Source: a bacterium (GTDB lineage: Bacteria > Actinomycetota > Thermoleophilia > Solirubrobacterales > Solirubrobacteraceae). From it: 64,000 nt of DNA. The translations under genes were made by a program, and so were the position numbers. Positions 5,937 through 49,025 of the stretch are shown here, in pieces; position 1 is the stretch's first letter; each line of letters starts with the position of its first letter. Under the pieces are notes generated by a model. That model had not been told where the DNA came from, searched no databases, and was given only the letters and a program-made list of their open reading frames with translations. The stretch is taken from assembly GCA_021323635.1 (NCBI GenBank), contig JAJPKQ010000004.1, positions 186,001-250,000 of the forward strand, written 5' to 3'.

Positions 5937-6634
5937 TCCCCGCGGCAGCCCCGCGCGCGCTCCTCGCAGCGCTCTCCCTGCCGATCGCGCTGGCAGGATG
6001 CAGCTCGCTGCGCGTGCCGAAGGCCGCAGCGGTGCATGAGCGGCGCATCGACCTGCAGCGTGCGGCTGATGCCCTGATCGCGCTCGAGCGCCCGCTCGCA
6101 GCTGAGATCGCCGCCTCCCGCAGCCTCTGGCCGCTGATCGACCACGGCCTCCTGCGCCGCCTGCACCGCAGCCGCCGCCCACGCGTTGAACTGCGCTCCG
6201 ACGCAACGCTCGCGCGCCGCCTCGATGCGGCCGAAGGCGCAGCCCGGCAGCTGCCGGCGCAGCTGCTCGCCGGCGCCGAAGAACTGACCGGGCCCGCCTC
6301 GGGCCTCGCCGGCCTCTACGCTCTGGCCAGCGGCCTGGCGACGCACTCGCTGGAAGCGCTCGCCGCCGCCGAGCGAGTGGGGCCAAGCGCCGGCGAGGCG
6401 ACCGCCAGCTACCTGCGCGGCAATGTGAACATGTACGTCGCCGACCTCTACGACGCCCACTTCGACCTCTCATACATCGGCAAGGCGCTGCGCGACGCCT
6501 ACCGCCGGATGGGGGGGCAGCGGACGTTTGGGGCGCGCCTGAGCGCCGCAGAGGTGGCACGCATCGCGCGCTTCTACTCGCCCGCTAACACGCGCCTGCG
6601 CCCCCACCCCTGGCAGAGCTTCGCCAGCGCCTGA
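5924..6634 (+). CDS. Putative lipoprotein of unknown function
   Basis: Lipobox-like LAGCSS after hydrophobic signal; overlaps preceding ORF by 13 bp. Confidence 0.55.
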   Translation: MRQLIPAAAPRALLAALSLPIALAGCSSLRVPKAAAVHERRIDLQRAADALIALERPLAAEIAASRSLWPLIDHGLLRRLHRSRRPRVELRSDATLARRLDAAEGAARQLPAQLLAGAEELTGPASGLAGLYALASGLATHSLEALAAAERVGPSAGEATASYLRGNVNMYVADLYDAHFDLSYIGKALRDAYRRMGGQRTFGARLSAAEVARIARFYSPANTRLRPHPWQSFASA

Positions 6635-6647
6635 GCGGGCGCCCGCT
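6634..6647. terminator. Possible hairpin terminator after the 4278-6634 gene pair
   Basis: Perfect 14-nt palindrome agcgggcgcccgct overlapping the stop codon; no U-tract. Confidence 0.3.
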
Positions 6648-6842
6648 TGTGCCGCAGCACCGCTCGGCACATCCGCAACAAAAGGTGTCCGGGCGGTGTT
6701 GTAGAAGTTGAAGGCCTAAACCTGCCCAGGCGTGCGGTCGATCTCCGTGGGGACTCGTGTGGTCCGCGGGTCGGAGAAGCGCCGCCTGTGTGCAGGTGGT
6801 GTCAAGAGAGCAACGGCAAGCAAACCCCAGATGGGAGGTCTC

Positions 6843-9800
6843 ATGAGCTCGGATAAGGCCATTGGCAGTCAGGCGACGGCGACCGGGCCGCGCACGGCGC
6901 TTGCGGCGCAGACGCGGGTCGGCGGCTTCGTTGCCGCAATCGCGCGCAGGAGCCTGGGCGCGCTCGCGCTCGCCGCACTGTGCTGCGCGGCGTCGCTTGC
7001 GGCAGCGCCCGCGGCACAGGCGATCGGCATCGAAACGCTCTTTGCGGGCAACTGCAAGGAAGGGACGGAAGCCACCTGCGGCCAGGAAGGCGGGAAGGTC
7101 AAGGACCCGTCGGTCGCGGAAGCTGAAGCGCACGGCTATCGGACCGCGGGCGGCTTCGTGCCGCTCGGCGTCACTGCCTTTCGCATGAAGTCCGAAAAGC
7201 TCAACATCCCGGGCGTGACCGAAGGTGAAATCGAAGTCCCTGAACACTTCCTCAACCCAATCACCTTCAAGGCCTCCGAAGGGGAAAGCGTGCGCTCGCT
7301 GCGCACCGATGTCGCCCCCGGCGTGGTGACAAGCGGCCAATCGGTGCCGCACTGCTCAATGGCGACATTCGGCGCGCTGGTGAAGGCTGAAGAAGGGCCC
7401 GAAAACCCGGCCGTCTACGCCCCCCCGGCATGCCCGCCGGACACCATAATCGGCTTCAACTCCGTTGAGACCGTCACCGCAAACGGATCCGGCAAGCTCG
7501 TCGATGCGCCGCTTATTGGGAAGGTCTACAACCTTGAACCGCTCAACGGCTGGGGCACCACCTACGGCGTGGCGATCTACACCGGCAAGGAAGTTGAAGT
7601 GGCGCCGAGCGTCAAGATCAAGCTCTACACGCACACGATCATCGAAGGCAACGTCGAATGGGCGACCAACTACCACGACTACTTTGAAATCCACAACATC
7701 CCGGTCGGCCTGATCGAATCGCGACTTGCCCTCTACGGCGATCATGAAGTCGTGAAGTTTGAAGAAGAAGTTGAACCATTCCTGATCGCCAAGCCAATCT
7801 TCGGCAACCTGACGACCTTCATCCGCAACCCGACCAGCTGCAACCCGCCGGGGCCCGCAACTGAAAACACGCTCAGTGCCGTGTCGGACATCGGGACGAC
7901 CGCGCAGCTCGCCTACGCCGACCCCGTCGGCACCAACGAATGCGAAAAGGAGTCCCCGTTCACGGAAGCGATGAGCTTCTCGCTTGAACCGCAGAGCGCC
8001 GCCTCCGACGCCGCCGACGGGATCACCACGACGCTCTCGGCGAAGCACCCGAGCGCGGAATCGGGCAAGGCCGACGTCTCGGACCTCAAGGAAGCCTCGA
8101 TCCTGCTTCCGCCCGGGATGTCGATGAACCCCTCCGCGGCGGCGGGCCTGGAAGCGTGCACGCCCAAGGAGATCGGCATCGGCACCCGCAACGCCGTCAC
8201 CTGCCCGCCCAGATCCCAGCTTGGCACGGTCAGCCTTGAAGTGCCGACGCTGCCCCCCGGGTCGCTTGCGGGCAACATCTACCTGGGCGCGCCGGAATCG
8301 GGGCCGATCACCGGGCCGCCATACACGATCTATCTTGATGCGGAGTCCTCACGCTACGGCGTCAAGGTCCGCCTCAAGGGCACGATCGCTCCCAACGAAG
8401 CGACCGGGCAGCTGCGAACGACGTTTGCGGAAAACCCCGAAGCGCCGTTCACAAGCATCACCCTGCGCTTCAACACCGGCCCGCTCGCGCCGCTCGCCAA
8501 CCCGCTCTCCTGTGGCGCAGCGAAGACGAGCGTGACGCTCGCGCCCTTCAGCGGCGTGCCCGCGACCTTCCTGCCGGAAGTCGCGCCCTTCACCGTCACG
8601 GGCTGCTCAGGGCCAAGCGCACCTTTCGCCGCGCCCGGTCTGGCCCAGGAAGCGCAGATCGACCCCGCCACCGCGGGCTCCTTCAACAACTTCACGTTGA
8701 ACCTCGCGCGTGCGGAAGGACAGCAGTACCTCTCGACGATCAAGACGGTGCTGCCGCCCGGCCTGGTCGGCGACATCCCCGACGTGACACCGTGCGCCGA
8801 AAGCGCGGCCAATGCGGGGACCTGCTCGAGCGAAAGCAAGATCGGCACCGTCTCGGTGCAGGCGGGCTCGGGCGCTGACCCCTACACCTTCACCGGCACG
8901 GTCTATCTGACCGAAAAGTACGGCGGGTCTCCCTACGGGCTCTCGATCGTCGTGCCCGCGAACGCCGGGCCATTTGCGCTCGGCAACGTGATCACGCGCG
9001 CAACGGTCGCGATCAACCCCTACACCGCCCAGGTGGAAGTGAGCGCAACCCTGCCGATGATCGTCAGGGGCATTCCGATCCGGCTGCGCTCGATGACCTT
9101 CCATGTCGATCGCCCGGGCTTCTACCGCAACCCCACAAGCTGCGCAGCGCTGCCGCTGACCAGCGCCCTGGGCGGCACCTCCACCCTGCCGGCCTCAGCG
9201 GGAGGGAGCGCCCAGCTTGTGAGCGACATCCAGGCGACCGGCTGCGCCGCGCTGCCCTTCAAGCCGCGCTTTGCAGCCTCGACACAGGCCAAGACCTCAC
9301 GTCTTGACGGCGCCTCGCTGAAGGTCACGATCGGCCAGGAAGGCGGCGGAGAAGCGAACATCGCCAAGGCGATCACCGTTCAGCCCTACCTGCTGCCCTC
9401 GCGACTGGCAACGCTGCAGAAGGCCTGCCCGGAAGCGCAGGGAGCGGCAAACATCATGGGCTGCCCCGCGACGTCCCTGGTCGGGCACGTCACCGCGGTA
9501 ACGCCTACCCTGCCCGGGAAGATGGAAGGCCCCGCCTACATCGTCTCCCAGGGCGGCCGCGCCTTCCCCAACCTCGACCTGGTGCTTGAAGGCGACGGGG
9601 TGCGCGTGATCCTGGTCGGCAACACCGACATCCACAAGGGGATCACGACCACCACCTTTGCCGCCAACCCGGACGTCCCGATCAAGAGCTTCACGCTCGA
9701 ACTGCCGCAGGGGCCGCACTCGCTGCTCTCCGCCAACGGCTCCTTCTGCAAGAAGCCCCTGATCATGCCGACGACCCTGATCGGGCAGAACGGCAAGGAA

Positions 9801-43562: not shown

Positions 43563-43563
43563 C

Positions 43564-43749
43564 CTAGAAGCTCTCGCCCTCTTCAAGGTCTTCGTAGTCG
43601 TCGAAGTCGACCTCTTCCTCGTCGGTGCCGAGGAGCTCGTCGTCTTCCTCCTCCCAATCGTCCGCGTCAAGTTCGCGCTCAGGTTCCTCAAGCCGGGTGC
43701 TCATCTGATCGAGACTCCTTCTTGTTGACTTGGTGTTGGGCTTGGCCAC
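43564..43749 (-). CDS. Small highly acidic protein of unknown function
   Basis: 61 aa ending DADDWEEEDDELLGTDEEEVDFDDYEDLEEGESF. Confidence 0.4.
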   Translation of the reverse strand: MAKPNTKSTRRSLDQMSTRLEEPERELDADDWEEEDDELLGTDEEEVDFDDYEDLEEGESF

Positions 43750-43770: not shown

Positions 43771-44259
43771 CTAGGCCGAGGCTCCGGCGGCTTCGGCCGA
43801 TGATAACCGCAGCACGCGCAGCACCTCTTCGTCATGCGTCGCGGGCGAGACCTTCGGGATCACGTGCATCACGACGCCATCGCCATCAACGATGAAGGTC
43901 GCCCGCTGGATGCCGAAGTACTCCCTCCCGTACATCGACTTCTTGACCCACACGCCATAGCGCTCGGCGACCGCGTGGTCCTCGTCGGAGAGCAGCGTGA
44001 AGCCCAGGCCGTACTTCTGGTCGAAGCGCTCCAGGCGCGCGACCGGGTCGGGCGAGATGCCGAGCACCCGCACACCCAGGCGCTCGTAGTCGCCGGCGTG
44101 GTCGCGCAGCGAGCAGGCCTGCTTGGTGCAGCCGGGCGTGTCGGCCTTGGGGTAGAAGTAGACCACGACAGGGCTGCCCCGCAGCTCCGAGAGGCGCACG
44201 AGCTGCCCATGCTGGTCGGGTAGCGCGAAGTCCGGAGCCTGCTCGCCCTGCTCGATCAT
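43771..44259 (-). CDS. bcp: Peroxiredoxin of the BCP/PrxQ type
   Basis: MIEQGEQAPDFALPDQHGQ..VVVYFYPKADTPGCTKQACSLRD; internal start chosen. Confidence 0.92.
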   Translation of the reverse strand: MIEQGEQAPDFALPDQHGQLVRLSELRGSPVVVYFYPKADTPGCTKQACSLRDHAGDYERLGVRVLGISPDPVARLERFDQKYGLGFTLLSDEDHAVAERYGVWVKKSMYGREYFGIQRATFIVDGDGVVMHVIPKVSPATHDEEVLRVLRLSSAEAAGASA

Positions 44260-44296: not shown

Positions 44297-44362
44297 AGCG
44301 GCTTGCAAGTACTTGCAAGTACTTGCAAGCAAGACTTGAAAGGCCGCCTTCAGCCGACTGGC
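44297..44362. repeat. Direct repeat copy 1 with three CTTGCAAG iterons (10-bp period)
   Basis: agcggcttgcaagtacttgcaagtacttgcaagcaagacttgaaaggccgccttcagccgactggc; matches 45899-45954. Confidence 0.85.
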
Positions 44363-44397
44363 GCCGCGCGGTCGACCGCGCTCAGAGCATCGGGCTG

Positions 44398-45780
44398 CTA
44401 CCTCAATCTCCAATATGCGCGCGGATCGCGAGCTGACTTGCCCACCCATGCAACCCCGCCTGCGTCGAGCAGGGCCCTCAGCTCGCGCTGCGCAGTCGGG
44501 CGCGAAATCTGCAGCGCCTCGGCGATCTCGCCTGTGCTGAGACGACTCTGCTCGCGGAGCAAGGCCATGATCGACCGCCCGCGCGCTGAAAGCGAGGCAT
44601 CGAGCGCACGGTCGACCGGGTCAGTCAGGAGGCTCAGCTGCGCGCCGCTCGAGGCCTGTCGATAGATCGGGTCGCTCAGGCCGGCTGCGCGCATCTCCTC
44701 GAACATCCTGCGGATACCCTCGCCCAGCTCCTGTCCGAAGCTCAGGTCCGCGCATACGCGAGCGATGCGTGGATTGCGAGCAAAGCGCGTCACGTGCGCG
44801 GGATCGCTCAGATCGACCAACCCCAGGAAGCGCCCCGGGCTCCAGATCTCGATTCGGTCATCGAAGACCTCGACGCGCACGTGATCGCCGGCAATGCTGT
44901 AGGAGCGGTGCACCACGGCGTTCACCAAGCCCTCCAGCCATGCGTCTTCGGGGATCAGCGCGATCGGTCCAAACTTTGCCGCGCCGCGCCGAAGCGCGCG
45001 CCGGAACGGCTGAAGCTCGCTCACCCGCGCCTGCGCGGCGAACAGCTGCCTCGGTATCGGGCCTTCAAAGCGCTCGTCGCCGATCAGCTGCTGGCGGACG
45101 CCAGCGCCGCGCTCTCGCCCGCGGTAGCGCAGCACACGCACGTACGCCTCGGGCAGCTCGAGCTGCGGATATTGCGCGAAAAGGAGGGCGCCCGCGATCG
45201 TCAGTCGATCGTCCACCGCAAGGCCGCGCGCTACAAGCAGGCGGTGGAGATCCGGGGCACCGACAGCGGACCGGTAGCTCTCGGCCAGCTCGACGTCCAG
45301 GCTCTCGAGCGTGAGATCTCGGCACAGACGGGCCTCGTAGCTGGCTTGACGCTTGTCGAAGATCAGCTCCTGCCGCTGCGCAAAGGAAAGCCGACGATTC
45401 TCATCACCGACGCGCAGAAACATCTCGTCGCGCTTGTTCGCATGGACTTCATCGGTCGGCTCCACCTCGATCACCAGCAGATGGTCAGGCTGTGCGCGCT
45501 CGTTGACACATTCGACCAGCCGCGAGCGCGCTCGCACCGGCGGCTCGCAGTAGTCGCTGCTCGCCTGCAGCTGCGCGTTGCGAAGCTCAGGCCAGCGATC
45601 GGTCCCCTCGACCCTCCCGGCGCGCAGACCTACGATCACAATCCCGCCGTCGGCATTCGCCAATCCGATGAGGCAGTCCGCCAGATCTTTGGCTTGGACC
45701 TTCGCCGACTTGCGCTCGAACCACTGGTCCTCAGGCAGCGAGGCGAGCAGCTCGCCGCGCTGTCCGGGAGCTGCGTTCAA
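44398..45780 (-). CDS. AlbA_2 (Schlafen-type) ATP-binding regulator with C-terminal winged helix-turn-helix
   Basis: E-x-K AlbA_2-like start (WFERKSAKVQAKDLADCLIGLANADGGIVIVGLRAG), HATPase-like EDAWLEGLVNAVVHRSYSIAGDHVRVEVFDDRIEIWSPGRF, C-terminal LSTGEIAEALQISRPTAQRELRALLDAGG. Confidence 0.85.
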   Translation of the reverse strand: MNAAPGQRGELLASLPEDQWFERKSAKVQAKDLADCLIGLANADGGIVIVGLRAGRVEGTDRWPELRNAQLQASSDYCEPPVRARSRLVECVNERAQPDHLLVIEVEPTDEVHANKRDEMFLRVGDENRRLSFAQRQELIFDKRQASYEARLCRDLTLESLDVELAESYRSAVGAPDLHRLLVARGLAVDDRLTIAGALLFAQYPQLELPEAYVRVLRYRGRERGAGVRQQLIGDERFEGPIPRQLFAAQARVSELQPFRRALRRGAAKFGPIALIPEDAWLEGLVNAVVHRSYSIAGDHVRVEVFDDRIEIWSPGRFLGLVDLSDPAHVTRFARNPRIARVCADLSFGQELGEGIRRMFEEMRAAGLSDPIYRQASSGAQLSLLTDPVDRALDASLSARGRSIMALLREQSRLSTGEIAEALQISRPTAQRELRALLDAGGVAWVGKSARDPRAYWRLR

Positions 45781-45819
45781 CGCCGACTCGACCTGTACCG
45801 CTGCCTTCGCCTCTGCGCT

Positions 45820-45842
45820 CTACTTGAAATAATTGCAAGTAG
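45820..45842. promoter_or_regulatory. Inverted repeat upstream of the AlbA_2 regulator gene
   Basis: CTACTTG-N9-CAAGTAG perfect 7-bp arms about 40 bp upstream of the ATG; same core as the flanking iterons. Confidence 0.55.
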
Positions 45843-45898
45843 ACTTCAGCATTCGACCGTGCCTAGGTGCGTGAGCGACGGGCGCTCGCGCGATGACG

Positions 45899-45954
45899 AG
45901 CGGCTTGCAAGCACTTGCAAGCAAGACTTGAAAGCCCCCTTCAGCCGGCCTGGC
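45899..45954. repeat. Direct repeat copy 2 with two CTTGCAAG iterons
   Basis: agcggcttgcaagcacttgcaagcaagacttgaaagcccccttcagccggcctggc; one 10-bp unit shorter than copy 1. Confidence 0.85.
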
Positions 45955-45975: not shown

Positions 45976-47400
45976 TCAGGTCGCGGGCATCGGGAAGCCT
46001 TCGTAGCGGACGCCGCCAGGGCCGATCCAGCGCAGCTTCCAGAAGAGCCCGCGCACGCGCGAGCGCAGGACGAAGTAGCCGAGCGAGCCTGTGCGCACGT
46101 GCGCAAGCAGGGTGTAGGGGCCGCCACGGCGGCGCTCGATCAGCAGCTCGGCGGAGGTAGCCCCGTGCGCCGGGCGGATGTGACCCCAGATGTAGTAGCC
46201 GTTGCGTTCTGCGCGCACCACGAGCGGCAGCGGGAAGGAGTAGTAGAGGGGCATGGGCGCACCCCGCGCCGACTCCAGGCCGGTCTGAAAGCCGATCCAG
46301 CCCGGCGGATGGTGGCGCGGCACGGCGTCGTCGCGCAGCTCGTACTGCGAGAAGGCATCGACGTGAGGGTTTTCCCAGGCCAGATGTTCGGAGACCGCGT
46401 CCTGCACGGCCTGCTCGAAGGGCGAGACGCCAAGCGAGTTCGGCCTCTGGTTGATCCCAAACTCGGTCAGGTAGATGCCGATGCCTGCTCTGATCGCGCC
46501 GGCGCGCGCGGCGAGGCTGAGCGCGCGCACGAGCCGGCCGAGGGTTCCGATCGTGACTTCTTCGGGGCTTTGCGGCACATAGTTGGGGCCGCGCGAGTTC
46601 GTGTAGGCGTGATGCGCATAGCCGTAGGCGGGCAGGGTGCCGCAGCGCCCGACGCGCCGATAGGCGCCGTTGAGGCAGAGCGCCCCGCGCAGGAAGGTGA
46701 GCGGCGCCATCTGATGCACAGTGCCTTCACGGGGCACGTCCACCGATGAGCTCCCGAAGGGCGCGGTTTCGCCCATCAGCACCCTCGGGCTGCCGATGCC
46801 AGCCGCGCGCAGGCCGCTGTAGCCGGCCAGGAACAGGCCACGGTAGATCGCCGGGGAGGCCGGAGAGCCGTTTGCGTTCCACTGCGGCTGCAGCCAGCCG
46901 AGCTGGTTGGGCTCGTTCCAGATCGCCCACAGCGAGACGTAGGGGGCGAAGCGGCGGCCGACTGCGGTCATGAACTGGCGAAATGCCGCGTCGTTGGGGC
47001 GGGTGAGATGGTCGCGATGGTTGCCGCTCGCCCATCTCGGCACTGGCCCGGTGACGGTCAGGAGCACCTGCCAGTGCAGGCGCTGCGCTTCTTCAAGCTC
47101 GCCCGGCAGCGCACCCCAGTTGTAGCTGTCCGGATCGGCGGCGGCAAAGCGCGGCGCCCGCGGGCTGCTCGGGCGCGGCGCGACCTGATCCCAGATCAGG
47201 ATCAGCCGCAGCGCATCGACGCCCAGATGGCGCATCTGCGCGACCGTCTGAGGGCGTGTGCGGGGATTTTCAAACTGGGCGCCAGGCTCGAAGTAGACGG
47301 TCTGCGTCCGCGAGGCCGCCGCGCTGCCTGCGAGCGCCATCGAGAGCACGCACGCCAGCGAGACGCTCGTGGGGGCAAGTGCTGCGCGCAGCCTTCCCAT
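45976..47400 (-). CDS. Exported glycoside hydrolase-like protein (clan GH-A type), paralog A
   Basis: Signal-like N-terminus; WAIWNEPNQLGW (acid/base) and GIYLTEFGIN (nucleophile) motifs; beta-rich C-terminus. Confidence 0.75.
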   Translation of the reverse strand: MGRLRAALAPTSVSLACVLSMALAGSAAASRTQTVYFEPGAQFENPRTRPQTVAQMRHLGVDALRLILIWDQVAPRPSSPRAPRFAAADPDSYNWGALPGELEEAQRLHWQVLLTVTGPVPRWASGNHRDHLTRPNDAAFRQFMTAVGRRFAPYVSLWAIWNEPNQLGWLQPQWNANGSPASPAIYRGLFLAGYSGLRAAGIGSPRVLMGETAPFGSSSVDVPREGTVHQMAPLTFLRGALCLNGAYRRVGRCGTLPAYGYAHHAYTNSRGPNYVPQSPEEVTIGTLGRLVRALSLAARAGAIRAGIGIYLTEFGINQRPNSLGVSPFEQAVQDAVSEHLAWENPHVDAFSQYELRDDAVPRHHPPGWIGFQTGLESARGAPMPLYYSFPLPLVVRAERNGYYIWGHIRPAHGATSAELLIERRRGGPYTLLAHVRTGSLGYFVLRSRVRGLFWKLRWIGPGGVRYEGFPMPAT

Positions 47401-48830
47401 CAGCGCGAGAGCGCGATCGGCGGTCCTTCGTAGACTGGGCCTTCAGGGCTCACCCAGCGCAGCTTCCAGGCGACGCCGTGCACGCGTGAGCGCAGCTGGA
47501 AGTAGCCAGCCGCGTCGGTGTGCACCGCCGCAAGCTTGACGAAGCGACGTCTGGGGGCACGCTCGAGGAGGATCTCCGCGCTCGTCGCCCCCTGCGCGGG
47601 CCGAACCAGCCCCCAGAGAGCGAAGGCGCCGCGCGACCTTCTCACGACCAGCGCCAGCGGGAAGCCGTAGTAGAGCGGCTTCGGCCTGCCCGCGGCAGTC
47701 TCCAGCCCGGTCTGGAAGCCGGTCCAGTCGCGCGGATGGTGGCGCGGGATGACATCATCGCGCAGCTCGTACTGCCCGAAGGAGGCAACGCGGGGATTGC
47801 CCCAGGCGATCATCTCCGAGAGCGCGTCGAACTGCGCCTGCTTGGCAGGGCTGACGCCAAGCGGGTTTGGCCTGGTGTTGATGCCGAACTCGGTCAGGTA
47901 GATGGGCATGCCGGCCCTGATCGCGCCCGCGCGGGCGGCGAGGTTGAGCGCCCGGACGAGCCGCCCAAGTGTCCCGATCGTCACCTGATCGCGGTTGGGC
48001 GGGACGTAGGAGGGGCCCGAGGCGTTGGGGTAGGCGTGGTGGCCGTAGCCGTAAGCGGGCAGGCGCGGGCAGTGCCCGATCGGGCGGTAGCGGCTGCTCA
48101 GGCACAGGGTACCCCGCAGGAAGGTCAGCGGCGCCATCTGGTGCACGGTCCCTTCGCGGCGCGCGTTGACTGTCGAGTTTCCAAACGGCGCGGTTTCTCC
48201 CATCAGCATCTTGGGGCTGCTGATGCCCGCCGCGCGCAGGCCGCTGTAGCCGGCCATGAAGAGGCCGCGGTAGATCGCCGGGGAGGCCGGAGTGCCGTTT
48301 GCGCTCCACTGCGGCTGCAGCCAGCCGAGCTGGTTGGGCTCGTTCCAGATCGCCCACAGCGCGACGTAAGGGCCGAGCTCCTTGCCGGCGGCGGTCATGA
48401 ATTCACGGAAGTCCATGTCGCTGGGACGCGTCAGGTGATCACGGTGCGTGGAGCTCGCCCACTTTGGGACCGGCGATGTGACCGTGAGCAGCACCGGCCA
48501 GTGCAGGCGCTTGGCTTCTTCAAGCGCGGGCAGATACGCGCTCCAGTCGTAGCTTGCGGGGTCGGTGCCCGCGAAGCGCGGCTTGCGGGCGCTGTTTGGC
48601 TGGGGCGCGACCGCGTCCCAATAGAGCATGATGCGAAGCGCCCGCACGCCGAGGTGCTTGAGCGTCACGAAGGTCTGCGCGCGCTCGGCGGGATCGGTCA
48701 GCTGCTGGGTTGCGTCAAAGAAGGTGATCTGGGAGTGCGAGGCAAGCGCCGGCGGAGCGCCCGCGAGCGTGCCCGCCAGCAGCGCAGCGGCCGCACTCAG
48801 TGTCAACAGCGCTCTGCGTGAGTGGATCAT
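47400..48830 (-). CDS. Exported glycoside hydrolase-like protein (clan GH-A type), paralog B
   Basis: Start MIHSRRALLTLSAAAALLAG at 48830; WAIWNEPNQLGWLQPQW and PIYLTEFGIN; colinear with paralog A; the 932-aa ORF is read-through. Confidence 0.75.
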   Translation of the reverse strand: MIHSRRALLTLSAAAALLAGTLAGAPPALASHSQITFFDATQQLTDPAERAQTFVTLKHLGVRALRIMLYWDAVAPQPNSARKPRFAGTDPASYDWSAYLPALEEAKRLHWPVLLTVTSPVPKWASSTHRDHLTRPSDMDFREFMTAAGKELGPYVALWAIWNEPNQLGWLQPQWSANGTPASPAIYRGLFMAGYSGLRAAGISSPKMLMGETAPFGNSTVNARREGTVHQMAPLTFLRGTLCLSSRYRPIGHCPRLPAYGYGHHAYPNASGPSYVPPNRDQVTIGTLGRLVRALNLAARAGAIRAGMPIYLTEFGINTRPNPLGVSPAKQAQFDALSEMIAWGNPRVASFGQYELRDDVIPRHHPRDWTGFQTGLETAAGRPKPLYYGFPLALVVRRSRGAFALWGLVRPAQGATSAEILLERAPRRRFVKLAAVHTDAAGYFQLRSRVHGVAWKLRWVSPEGPVYEGPPIALSR

Positions 48831-49025
48831 CAAAACCTCGATTCGTCTGTTGGCGCCCGCCACCTGCCGGCAGCGCCGCAGTTTTGCCTGCATCAAGCTC
48901 TGACTCGAGCGCCAGGGCGGGGCGCCCTGCCCCTCCGGCCGCGCTCGGGAACCTCGACACCTTAGCGGCGCAAAGGTTGCGGTGTGCCACCTCGCGCCCG
49001 CGCGGGAGCCGCTAGCGTTTGCTCC

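What the first reader, a model, noticed from the sequence alone, without database searches (positions are those of the whole stretch)
44297..45954. AlbA_2/Schlafen-type regulator gene bounded by near-identical direct repeats: candidate mobile or self-regulated cassette
Seen directly: 44297-44362 and 45899-45954 share agcggcttgcaag...acttgcaagcaagacttgaaag...ccttcagccg..ctggc in the same orientation. They lie immediately either side of a single gene, 44398-45780(-). Codon usage inside the gene looks less GC3-extreme than in its neighbours. Known: AlbA_2 (Schlafen) domains fused to HATPase-like and winged-helix regions occur in regulators and in some mobile or defence-associated genes. Inference: recombination between the repeats would excise the gene cleanly, leaving one repeat between the peroxiredoxin and glycosidase genes. 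No transposase or integrase is in the window, so any mobilisation would need to be in trans or homologous.
Basis: partly seen in the sequence, partly recalled or inferred. Interest (0 to 1): 0.7.

Follow-up and report, generated by a model that had tools for sequence, protein, structure and literature searches.

The report
Self-regulated single-gene Schlafen mobile cassette

Summary
The repeats are real and occur nowhere else in this genome. They are two copies of an array of ~10-bp half-sites (CTTGCAAG, CTTGAAAG). The same half-site forms a 23-bp palindrome at 45820-45842, on the gene's promoter, unique in the genome. Across 56 homologous loci, 43 carry this palindrome just upstream of the gene, against none of 280 control windows. 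The start codon usually follows within about 4 nt, so transcripts should be leaderless. Half-sites lie after the stop codon in 27 of 43, and their sequence covaries with each gene's own operator and with the recognition helix of the protein's C-terminal winged helix (top of 354 columns). The gene is therefore very probably an autorepressor with flanking binding arrays. The protein is Schlafen AlbA_2 + GHKL ATPase + winged helix, a predicted anti-phage RNase type. Mobility is supported: patchy spread, lysogeny regions of temperate phages, and flanking direct repeats in 15 of 55 loci against 1 of 96 controls, including tRNA 3'-end duplications and no integrase. A one-repeat empty site was not seen; relatives have an Fpg-like gene there. 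How it moves and what it targets remain open.

The parts
44398..45780 (-). Schlafen-type protein gene, 460 aa: AlbA_2 (residues 17-131), HATPase_c_4/GHKL (298-379), C-terminal winged HTH (~391-459, recognition helix 427-439)
   Evidence: Pfam; AlphaFold model pLDDT 86; Foldseek 3lmm E 1e-22 and Schlafen N-domains E ~1e-4. The start codon used by orthologs is AAG here; TTG at 45780 is the first possible start
45820..45842 (-). 23-bp palindromic operator CTACTTGCAATTATTTCAAGTAG over the promoter
   Evidence: Equivalent palindrome in 43 of 56 loci vs 0 of 280 control windows; only match in own genome at up to 3 mismatches
44297..44362 (-). Downstream copy of the direct repeat; contains three CTTGCAAG half-sites at 10-bp spacing (44302-44329) plus CTTGAAAG (44335-44342)
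   Evidence: downstream half-sites in 27 of 43 loci, covarying with the operator
45899..45954 (-). Upstream copy of the direct repeat: two CTTGCAAG half-sites (45904-45921) plus CTTGAAAG (45927-45934)
43771..44256 (-). Flanking gene: PrxQ/Bcp-type peroxiredoxin (context, not part of the cassette)
45976..47400 (-). Flanking gene: putative secreted glycosidase-like protein (context); between it and bcp, relatives carry an Fpg/Nei-like gene instead of the cassette
   Evidence: the 474-aa protein itself has no Pfam hit

Best explanation
This is a self-contained, horizontally moving, single-gene cassette. The gene encodes a bacterial Schlafen protein (AlbA_2 nuclease-fold domain, GHKL ATPase domain, C-terminal winged helix). 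The winged helix binds a ~10-bp half-site. Two inverted half-sites form a palindrome over the -10 of its own promoter, so the protein represses its own transcription. Further half-sites, mostly head to tail one helical turn apart, form arrays just after the stop codon and/or upstream of the operator; the protein probably fills them cooperatively, either strengthening repression by looping or titrating the repressor. The window's direct repeats are two copies of that array. Conserved architecture, matching specificity and spread of the unit are shown by comparison; actual binding, repression and the role of the arrays are inferred. By domain content and published predictions the protein is probably an anti-phage effector held off by autorepression; this last step is inference (about 50%).
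For: Operator in 43/56 loci vs 0/280 controls. Operator-to-start gap median 4 nt; the right half-site TAnAGT fits the -10 of a leaderless gene. Own half-site within 150 bp after the stop in 27/43 loci vs 9/166 distal controls; own pairing beats all 10,000 re-pairings between loci. Half-sites upstream or downstream in 34/43; commonest same-strand spacings 11 and 10 bp (37 of 64). Recognition-helix residue Q431 ranks first of 354 variable columns for covariation with half-site positions 6-7, with T429 and E433 ranked 11 and 13; these lie in helix 427-439 of the model. Operator unique in own genome, so no regulon is evident. Unit moves: different neighbours, patchy distribution, in phages Nymphadora and Squirty, flanking direct repeats in 15/55 vs 1/96 controls, tRNA within 250 bp in 4/56 vs 3/309. 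Distant Streptococcus and Fusobacterium homologs keep arrays after the stop, e.g. 15.6 and 20 perfect 10-bp copies. Schlafen-HATPase-wHTH proteins are described as BREX-linked RNases in at least 1017 taxa (PMC12839542).
Against: No binding or expression data. Loci are related by descent, so permutation and covariation values are not strict probabilities. 13 of 56 loci lack a recognised operator, including all Firmicutes/Fusobacterium ones, and 9 of 43 lack any detected extra half-site. In the window the orthologous start codon is AAG, so this copy may be translated poorly or only from TTG 45780. The third acidic residue of the Schlafen active site is not clearly conserved.
Confidence: 0.72

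Rival explanations
1. Integrase-less, cis/trans-mobilised element (CIME-like): the gene sits between att-like direct repeats and is moved by integrases of other elements; the arrays are only regulatory. (Compatible with the regulatory part of the best explanation; it is a rival only about how the unit moves.)
For: Host-derived direct repeats: L035 (tRNA-Sec 3' end, 61 bp), L048 (tRNA-Arg 3' half, 46 bp identical), L080 (38 bp resembling a tRNA 3' end), L079, L084, L085; spans of 1.6-1.9 kb hold only this gene. L048 has a second stacked unit carrying a Fic gene bounded by another degenerate copy of the same tRNA-Arg fragment, as in accretion (PMC5704250).
Against: Only about 6 of 55 loci; window repeats are not host-derived; no donor integrase seen in the fetched stretches; targets differ widely.
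Confidence: 0.4
2. The protein itself helps mobilise the cassette: arrays at both ends are the recombination or transposition sites it binds, as a transposase binds its ends.
For: Arrays at both ends in the window, L070, L072 and Corynebacterium (75-109 bp, 91-100% identical); L076 keeps an apparent tandem-copy remnant.
Against: No transposase, integrase or relaxase domain; most loci have arrays on one side only; repeats are direct; no consistent target duplication.
Confidence: 0.08
3. Ordinary immobile autoregulator; the direct repeat is a local duplication with no role beyond regulation.
For: Autorepressor anatomy is the strongest signal; no one-repeat empty sites.
Against: Patchy distribution, phage copies, different neighbours, excess of flanking repeats and nearby tRNAs.
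Confidence: 0.2
4. Iteron-type replication or partition locus (helical-turn direct repeats plus autoregulated DNA-binding protein).
For: Iteron-like arrays next to an autoregulated gene; 10-bp perfect arrays in the S. respiraculi plasmid/phage and S. dysgalactiae.
Against: Almost all copies lie on contigs that look chromosomal; no Rep domain; domain set is Schlafen + GHKL + wHTH; the phage copies have their own repressor and integrase.
Confidence: 0.05

Closest known systems
Bacterial Schlafen proteins with C-terminal histidine-kinase-like ATPase and wHTH (COG2865 type; BREX-linked, PMC12839542; preprint 10.1101/2025.07.24.666596 cited there, not readable here)
   Same: Same domain order AlbA_2 - HATPase - wHTH; same annotation (ATP-binding protein, RecG-like helicase, transcriptional regulator); PADLOC pAgo-model hit E 4e-30
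   Different: Here a stand-alone gene with its own operator and arrays and no BREX or pAgo neighbours seen; RNase activity untested
CIME / accreted islands at tRNA genes (PMC5704250)
   Same: Direct att-like repeats from tRNA 3' ends, no integrase or transfer genes, stacking with another unit (L048)
   Different: Single-gene size 1.6-1.9 kb; origin by decay of an ICE/IME not shown; window copy has own-array repeats instead
Iteron plasmid Rep autoregulation (general knowledge)
   Same: Inverted half-sites in the promoter and direct half-site arrays nearby, read by the gene's own winged helix
   Different: Not a Rep protein; mostly chromosomal; no evidence of replication
Prophage-encoded defence genes of actinophages (e.g. 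PMC6426596, seen as a title and abstract)
   Same: Nymphadora gp38 and Squirty gp31 lie in the lysogeny region with a separate repressor and cro
   Different: Defence not tested for these genes

Membership tests
Bacterial Schlafen (AlbA_2-HATPase-wHTH) | SLFN_AlbA_2 domain | tested here: met
   PF04326 E 8.6e-12 above cutoff; Foldseek SLFN13/11/5/14 N-domains E ~1e-4
Bacterial Schlafen (AlbA_2-HATPase-wHTH) | HATPase domain with GHKL motifs | tested here: met
   PF13749 E 2.5e-19; E283/N287 98-100% conserved
Bacterial Schlafen (AlbA_2-HATPase-wHTH) | C-terminal winged HTH | tested here: met
   HTH_5 E 3e-6; model 391-459
Bacterial Schlafen (AlbA_2-HATPase-wHTH) | Schlafen nuclease active-site acids and RNase activity | tested here: inconclusive
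   E17 98%, E/D22 100%, K24 98% conserved, third acid (D61) only 36%; activity not testable here
CIME | attL/attR direct repeats at an integration target | tested here: inconclusive
   Met in L035, L048 and probably L080; not met in the window, where repeats are the gene's own array
CIME | no integrase or transfer genes inside | tested here: met
   Only this gene between the repeats
CIME | mobilisation by another element's integrase | not testable with these tools
   Needs strains and excision assays
Insertion sequence / transposon | transposase domain | tested here: not met
   No such domain among Pfam hits
Insertion sequence / transposon | terminal inverted repeats and short target duplication | tested here: not met
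   Flanking repeats are direct, 38-145 bp; a 5-bp CTAGG duplication at L074 vs L167 is doubtful
REP-like dispersed intergenic repeat | many copies in the genome | tested here: not met
   Only this locus
Iteron plasmid replicon | Rep initiator domain | tested here: not met
   No Rep domain among Pfam hits

The most novel reading that the evidence does not exclude
The Schlafen protein and its flanking arrays form a new kind of minimal mobile element: a one-gene unit whose own DNA-binding protein both silences it and, by bridging the two ends, takes part in its excision or integration at tRNA and other sites without a dedicated integrase.
Probability: 0.08. Interest if true: 0.9.

Novelty: new variant of a known kind. 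Interest (0 to 1): 0.64.

Why it matters
Bacterial Schlafens are being recognised as defence proteins, but how a lone effector gene is kept off and moved is not known. Here the question becomes testable: operator and arrays are predictable from sequence, candidate specificity-determining residues can be named, and the unit is small enough to study whole. The flanking arrays, present from Actinomycetota to Streptococcus and Fusobacterium, point to an old cis-partner of this protein that annotation does not record. The tRNA-flanked 1.8-kb copies suggest that single defence-type genes can move as minimal integrase-free cassettes.

Tried and rejected
REP-like repeat: rejected. Immunity repressor of a phage: rejected, since both phages have a separate repressor and cro beside the integrase. 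Structured RNA: no Rfam hit; operator and upstream repeat do not fold better than shuffles, the downstream array only moderately (z -2.6), as palindromic half-sites would. Wider regulon: none in own genome. Plasmid origin: the plasmid hits listed for the window protein are at most ~33% identical. Clean insertion at the bcp site: not supported, since relatives have an Fpg/Nei-like gene there that the own genome lacks in orthologous form. One-repeat scar in Corynebacterium: 0 of 15. Upstream operator matching the array in Streptococcus/Fusobacterium: not found. Literature searches for a described flanking-array Schlafen gene found none; most subscription papers and all bioRxiv preprints are outside the library.

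Full report
1. Observation. Their shared core is a short array of CTTGCAAG, 10 bp apart, followed by CTTGAAAG. In the window the octamer occurs only there; the double motif occurs nowhere else in the assembly or, exactly, in 200 relatives. The gene between is 44398-45780(-), with GC3 0.79 against 0.86-0.91 in its neighbours. Its protein has AlbA_2, HATPase_c_4 and a C-terminal winged HTH. The AlphaFold model (mean pLDDT 86) matches 3LMM of C. diphtheriae (E 1e-22) and human Schlafen N-domains (E ~1e-4).

2. The missed site. Orthologs at 58-68% identity show, in gene orientation, a 23-bp palindrome just before the start and related half-sites just after the stop, with different neighbouring genes. 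In the window the palindrome is 45820-45842. Both change together between loci: CTTG-type in the window and L006, CTCTAAAG-type in L007, CTGnAAAG-type in L008.

3. Statistics. 57 further loci, mostly from Actinomycetota, were fetched, plus one viral contig, phages and plasmids. Scoring CTACT-13-AGTAG plus palindromicity, 43 of 56 loci reach 14 or more of 20 within 110 bp upstream, and 0 of 280 control windows do. In 42 of 43 the start codon follows within 14 nt, median 4; the right arm reads TAnAGT in most loci, which fits a -10 element six bases before a leaderless start (the promoter reading is inference). Own half-sites (8 of 10 or better) lie within 150 bp after the stop in 27 of 43 against 9 of 166 distal windows, and true pairing beats every one of 10,000 re-pairings. 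Adding the upstream side, 34 of 43 have extra half-sites against 5 of 84 control windows; same-strand spacing peaks at 11 and 10 bp. Loci are related, so these are not strict probabilities.

4. Who reads the site. Of 354 variable protein columns, the one that covaries best with half-site positions 6-7 is Q431; T429 and E433 are 11th and 13th. All three lie in the winged-helix recognition helix 427-439. QRE/RRE goes with CTACTTG, VLRH/VLQH with CTACTCT, VRRA/VRRS with CTACTCG, ATR/AST with CTACTG. This is the strongest indication that the protein itself binds operator and arrays. The operator is unique in the genome at up to 3 mismatches, so self-regulation is the only target found.

5. Arrays beyond Actinomycetota. 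Homologs at ~30-35% identity carry arrays directly after the stop: 15.6 perfect 10-bp copies in the S. respiraculi plasmid/phage, 20 perfect copies in S. dysgalactiae, shorter ones in viral contigs L092 and L094 and in Fusobacterium L096. A 25%-identity homolog in the window's own genus has about six copies (L027). A matching upstream operator was not found in these.

6. Mobility. In the genus, only two of 23 other genomes have a good ortholog, and in G023 it lies on a different contig from bcp. Orthologs sit in Gordonia phage Nymphadora gp38 and Mycobacterium phage Squirty gp31, on the tail/lysis side of the integrase, beside a separate repressor. Flanking direct repeats of 40 bits or more occur in 15 of 55 loci against 1 of 96 shifted intervals. 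Two classes exist. Own-array repeats: window, L070, L072, L074-L078 (75-109 bp, 91-100% in Corynebacterium). Host-derived repeats: L035 at tRNA-Sec, L048 at tRNA-Arg, L080 at a tRNA-like 3' end (no Rfam tRNA hit there), and L079, L084, L085 elsewhere; the 1.6-1.9 kb between them contains only this gene. In L048 a second unit with a Fic gene lies between another, degenerate copy of the tRNA-Arg fragment and the cassette, like accretion of cis-mobilizable elements (PMC5704250). In L076 the upstream repeat includes the gene's 3' end, preceded by a 50-bp piece of the gene's 5' part, which reads as the remnant of a tandem copy.

7. Empty sites. Relatives of the window genome keep bcp and the glycosidase gene close together; in the three with the tightest spacing that were read (L145-L147) an Fpg/Nei-like gene lies between them. 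The window genome has no orthologous copy of it. So the cassette occupies the place of another gene rather than a clean insertion point. At one Corynebacterium site, a gene-less locus runs from the response-regulator stop straight to the convergent neighbour (L167 against L074), and none of 15 gene-less loci carries a half-site scar. Recombination leaving one repeat is therefore possible but not observed.

8. Function. Schlafen-HATPase-wHTH proteins are reported linked to BREX in at least 1017 taxa and described as RNases that may act in abortive infection (PMC12839542). Here E17, E/D22 and K24 are nearly invariant but the third acid is not. The phage lysogeny location fits a defence role. This is inference, about 50% likely.

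9. Caveat for the window copy. The orthologous start codon reads AAG; the first usable start is TTG at 45780. The frame is intact, but expression may be weakened.

10. Verdict. The repeats are very probably self-binding arrays of an autoregulated, mobile single-gene Schlafen cassette. The protein kind is known; the cis architecture, its covariation and the one-gene mobile form are, as far as the held literature shows, not described.

Noticed in passing
L090:5417-5572; L091:5417-5616: Perfect 10-bp tandem arrays (15.6 and 20 copies) directly after the Schlafen-like gene in two Streptococcus plasmid/phage records; copy number may vary between strains.
   Followed up: partly
L048:2445-6000: Two stacked units at tRNA-Arg, one with a Fic gene and one with the Schlafen gene, separated by tRNA 3' fragments.
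   Followed up: partly
L076:4811-4955: Remnant of an upstream tandem copy: 50 bp of the gene's 5' part joined to its 3' end plus the repeat.
   Followed up: partly
L027:2588-2648: A 25%-identity homolog in the same genus has a CACTCTGCCA array right after its stop, suggesting arrays are general in this superfamily.
   Followed up: no
45976-48900: Two adjacent 65%-identical glycosidase-like genes in tandem; the first has no Pfam hit.
   Followed up: no
43563-43704 (-): Short, very acidic ORF (runs of Glu/Asp) next to the peroxiredoxin gene.
   Followed up: no
L050:3776-4852 and 6521-7604: About 1.1 kb of neighbouring sequence duplicated (82-94%) on both sides of the Schlafen gene.
   Followed up: no
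L098, L099 (Streptococcus satellite phages): Distant relatives of the gene sit between repressor and integrase in satellite phages.
   Followed up: no
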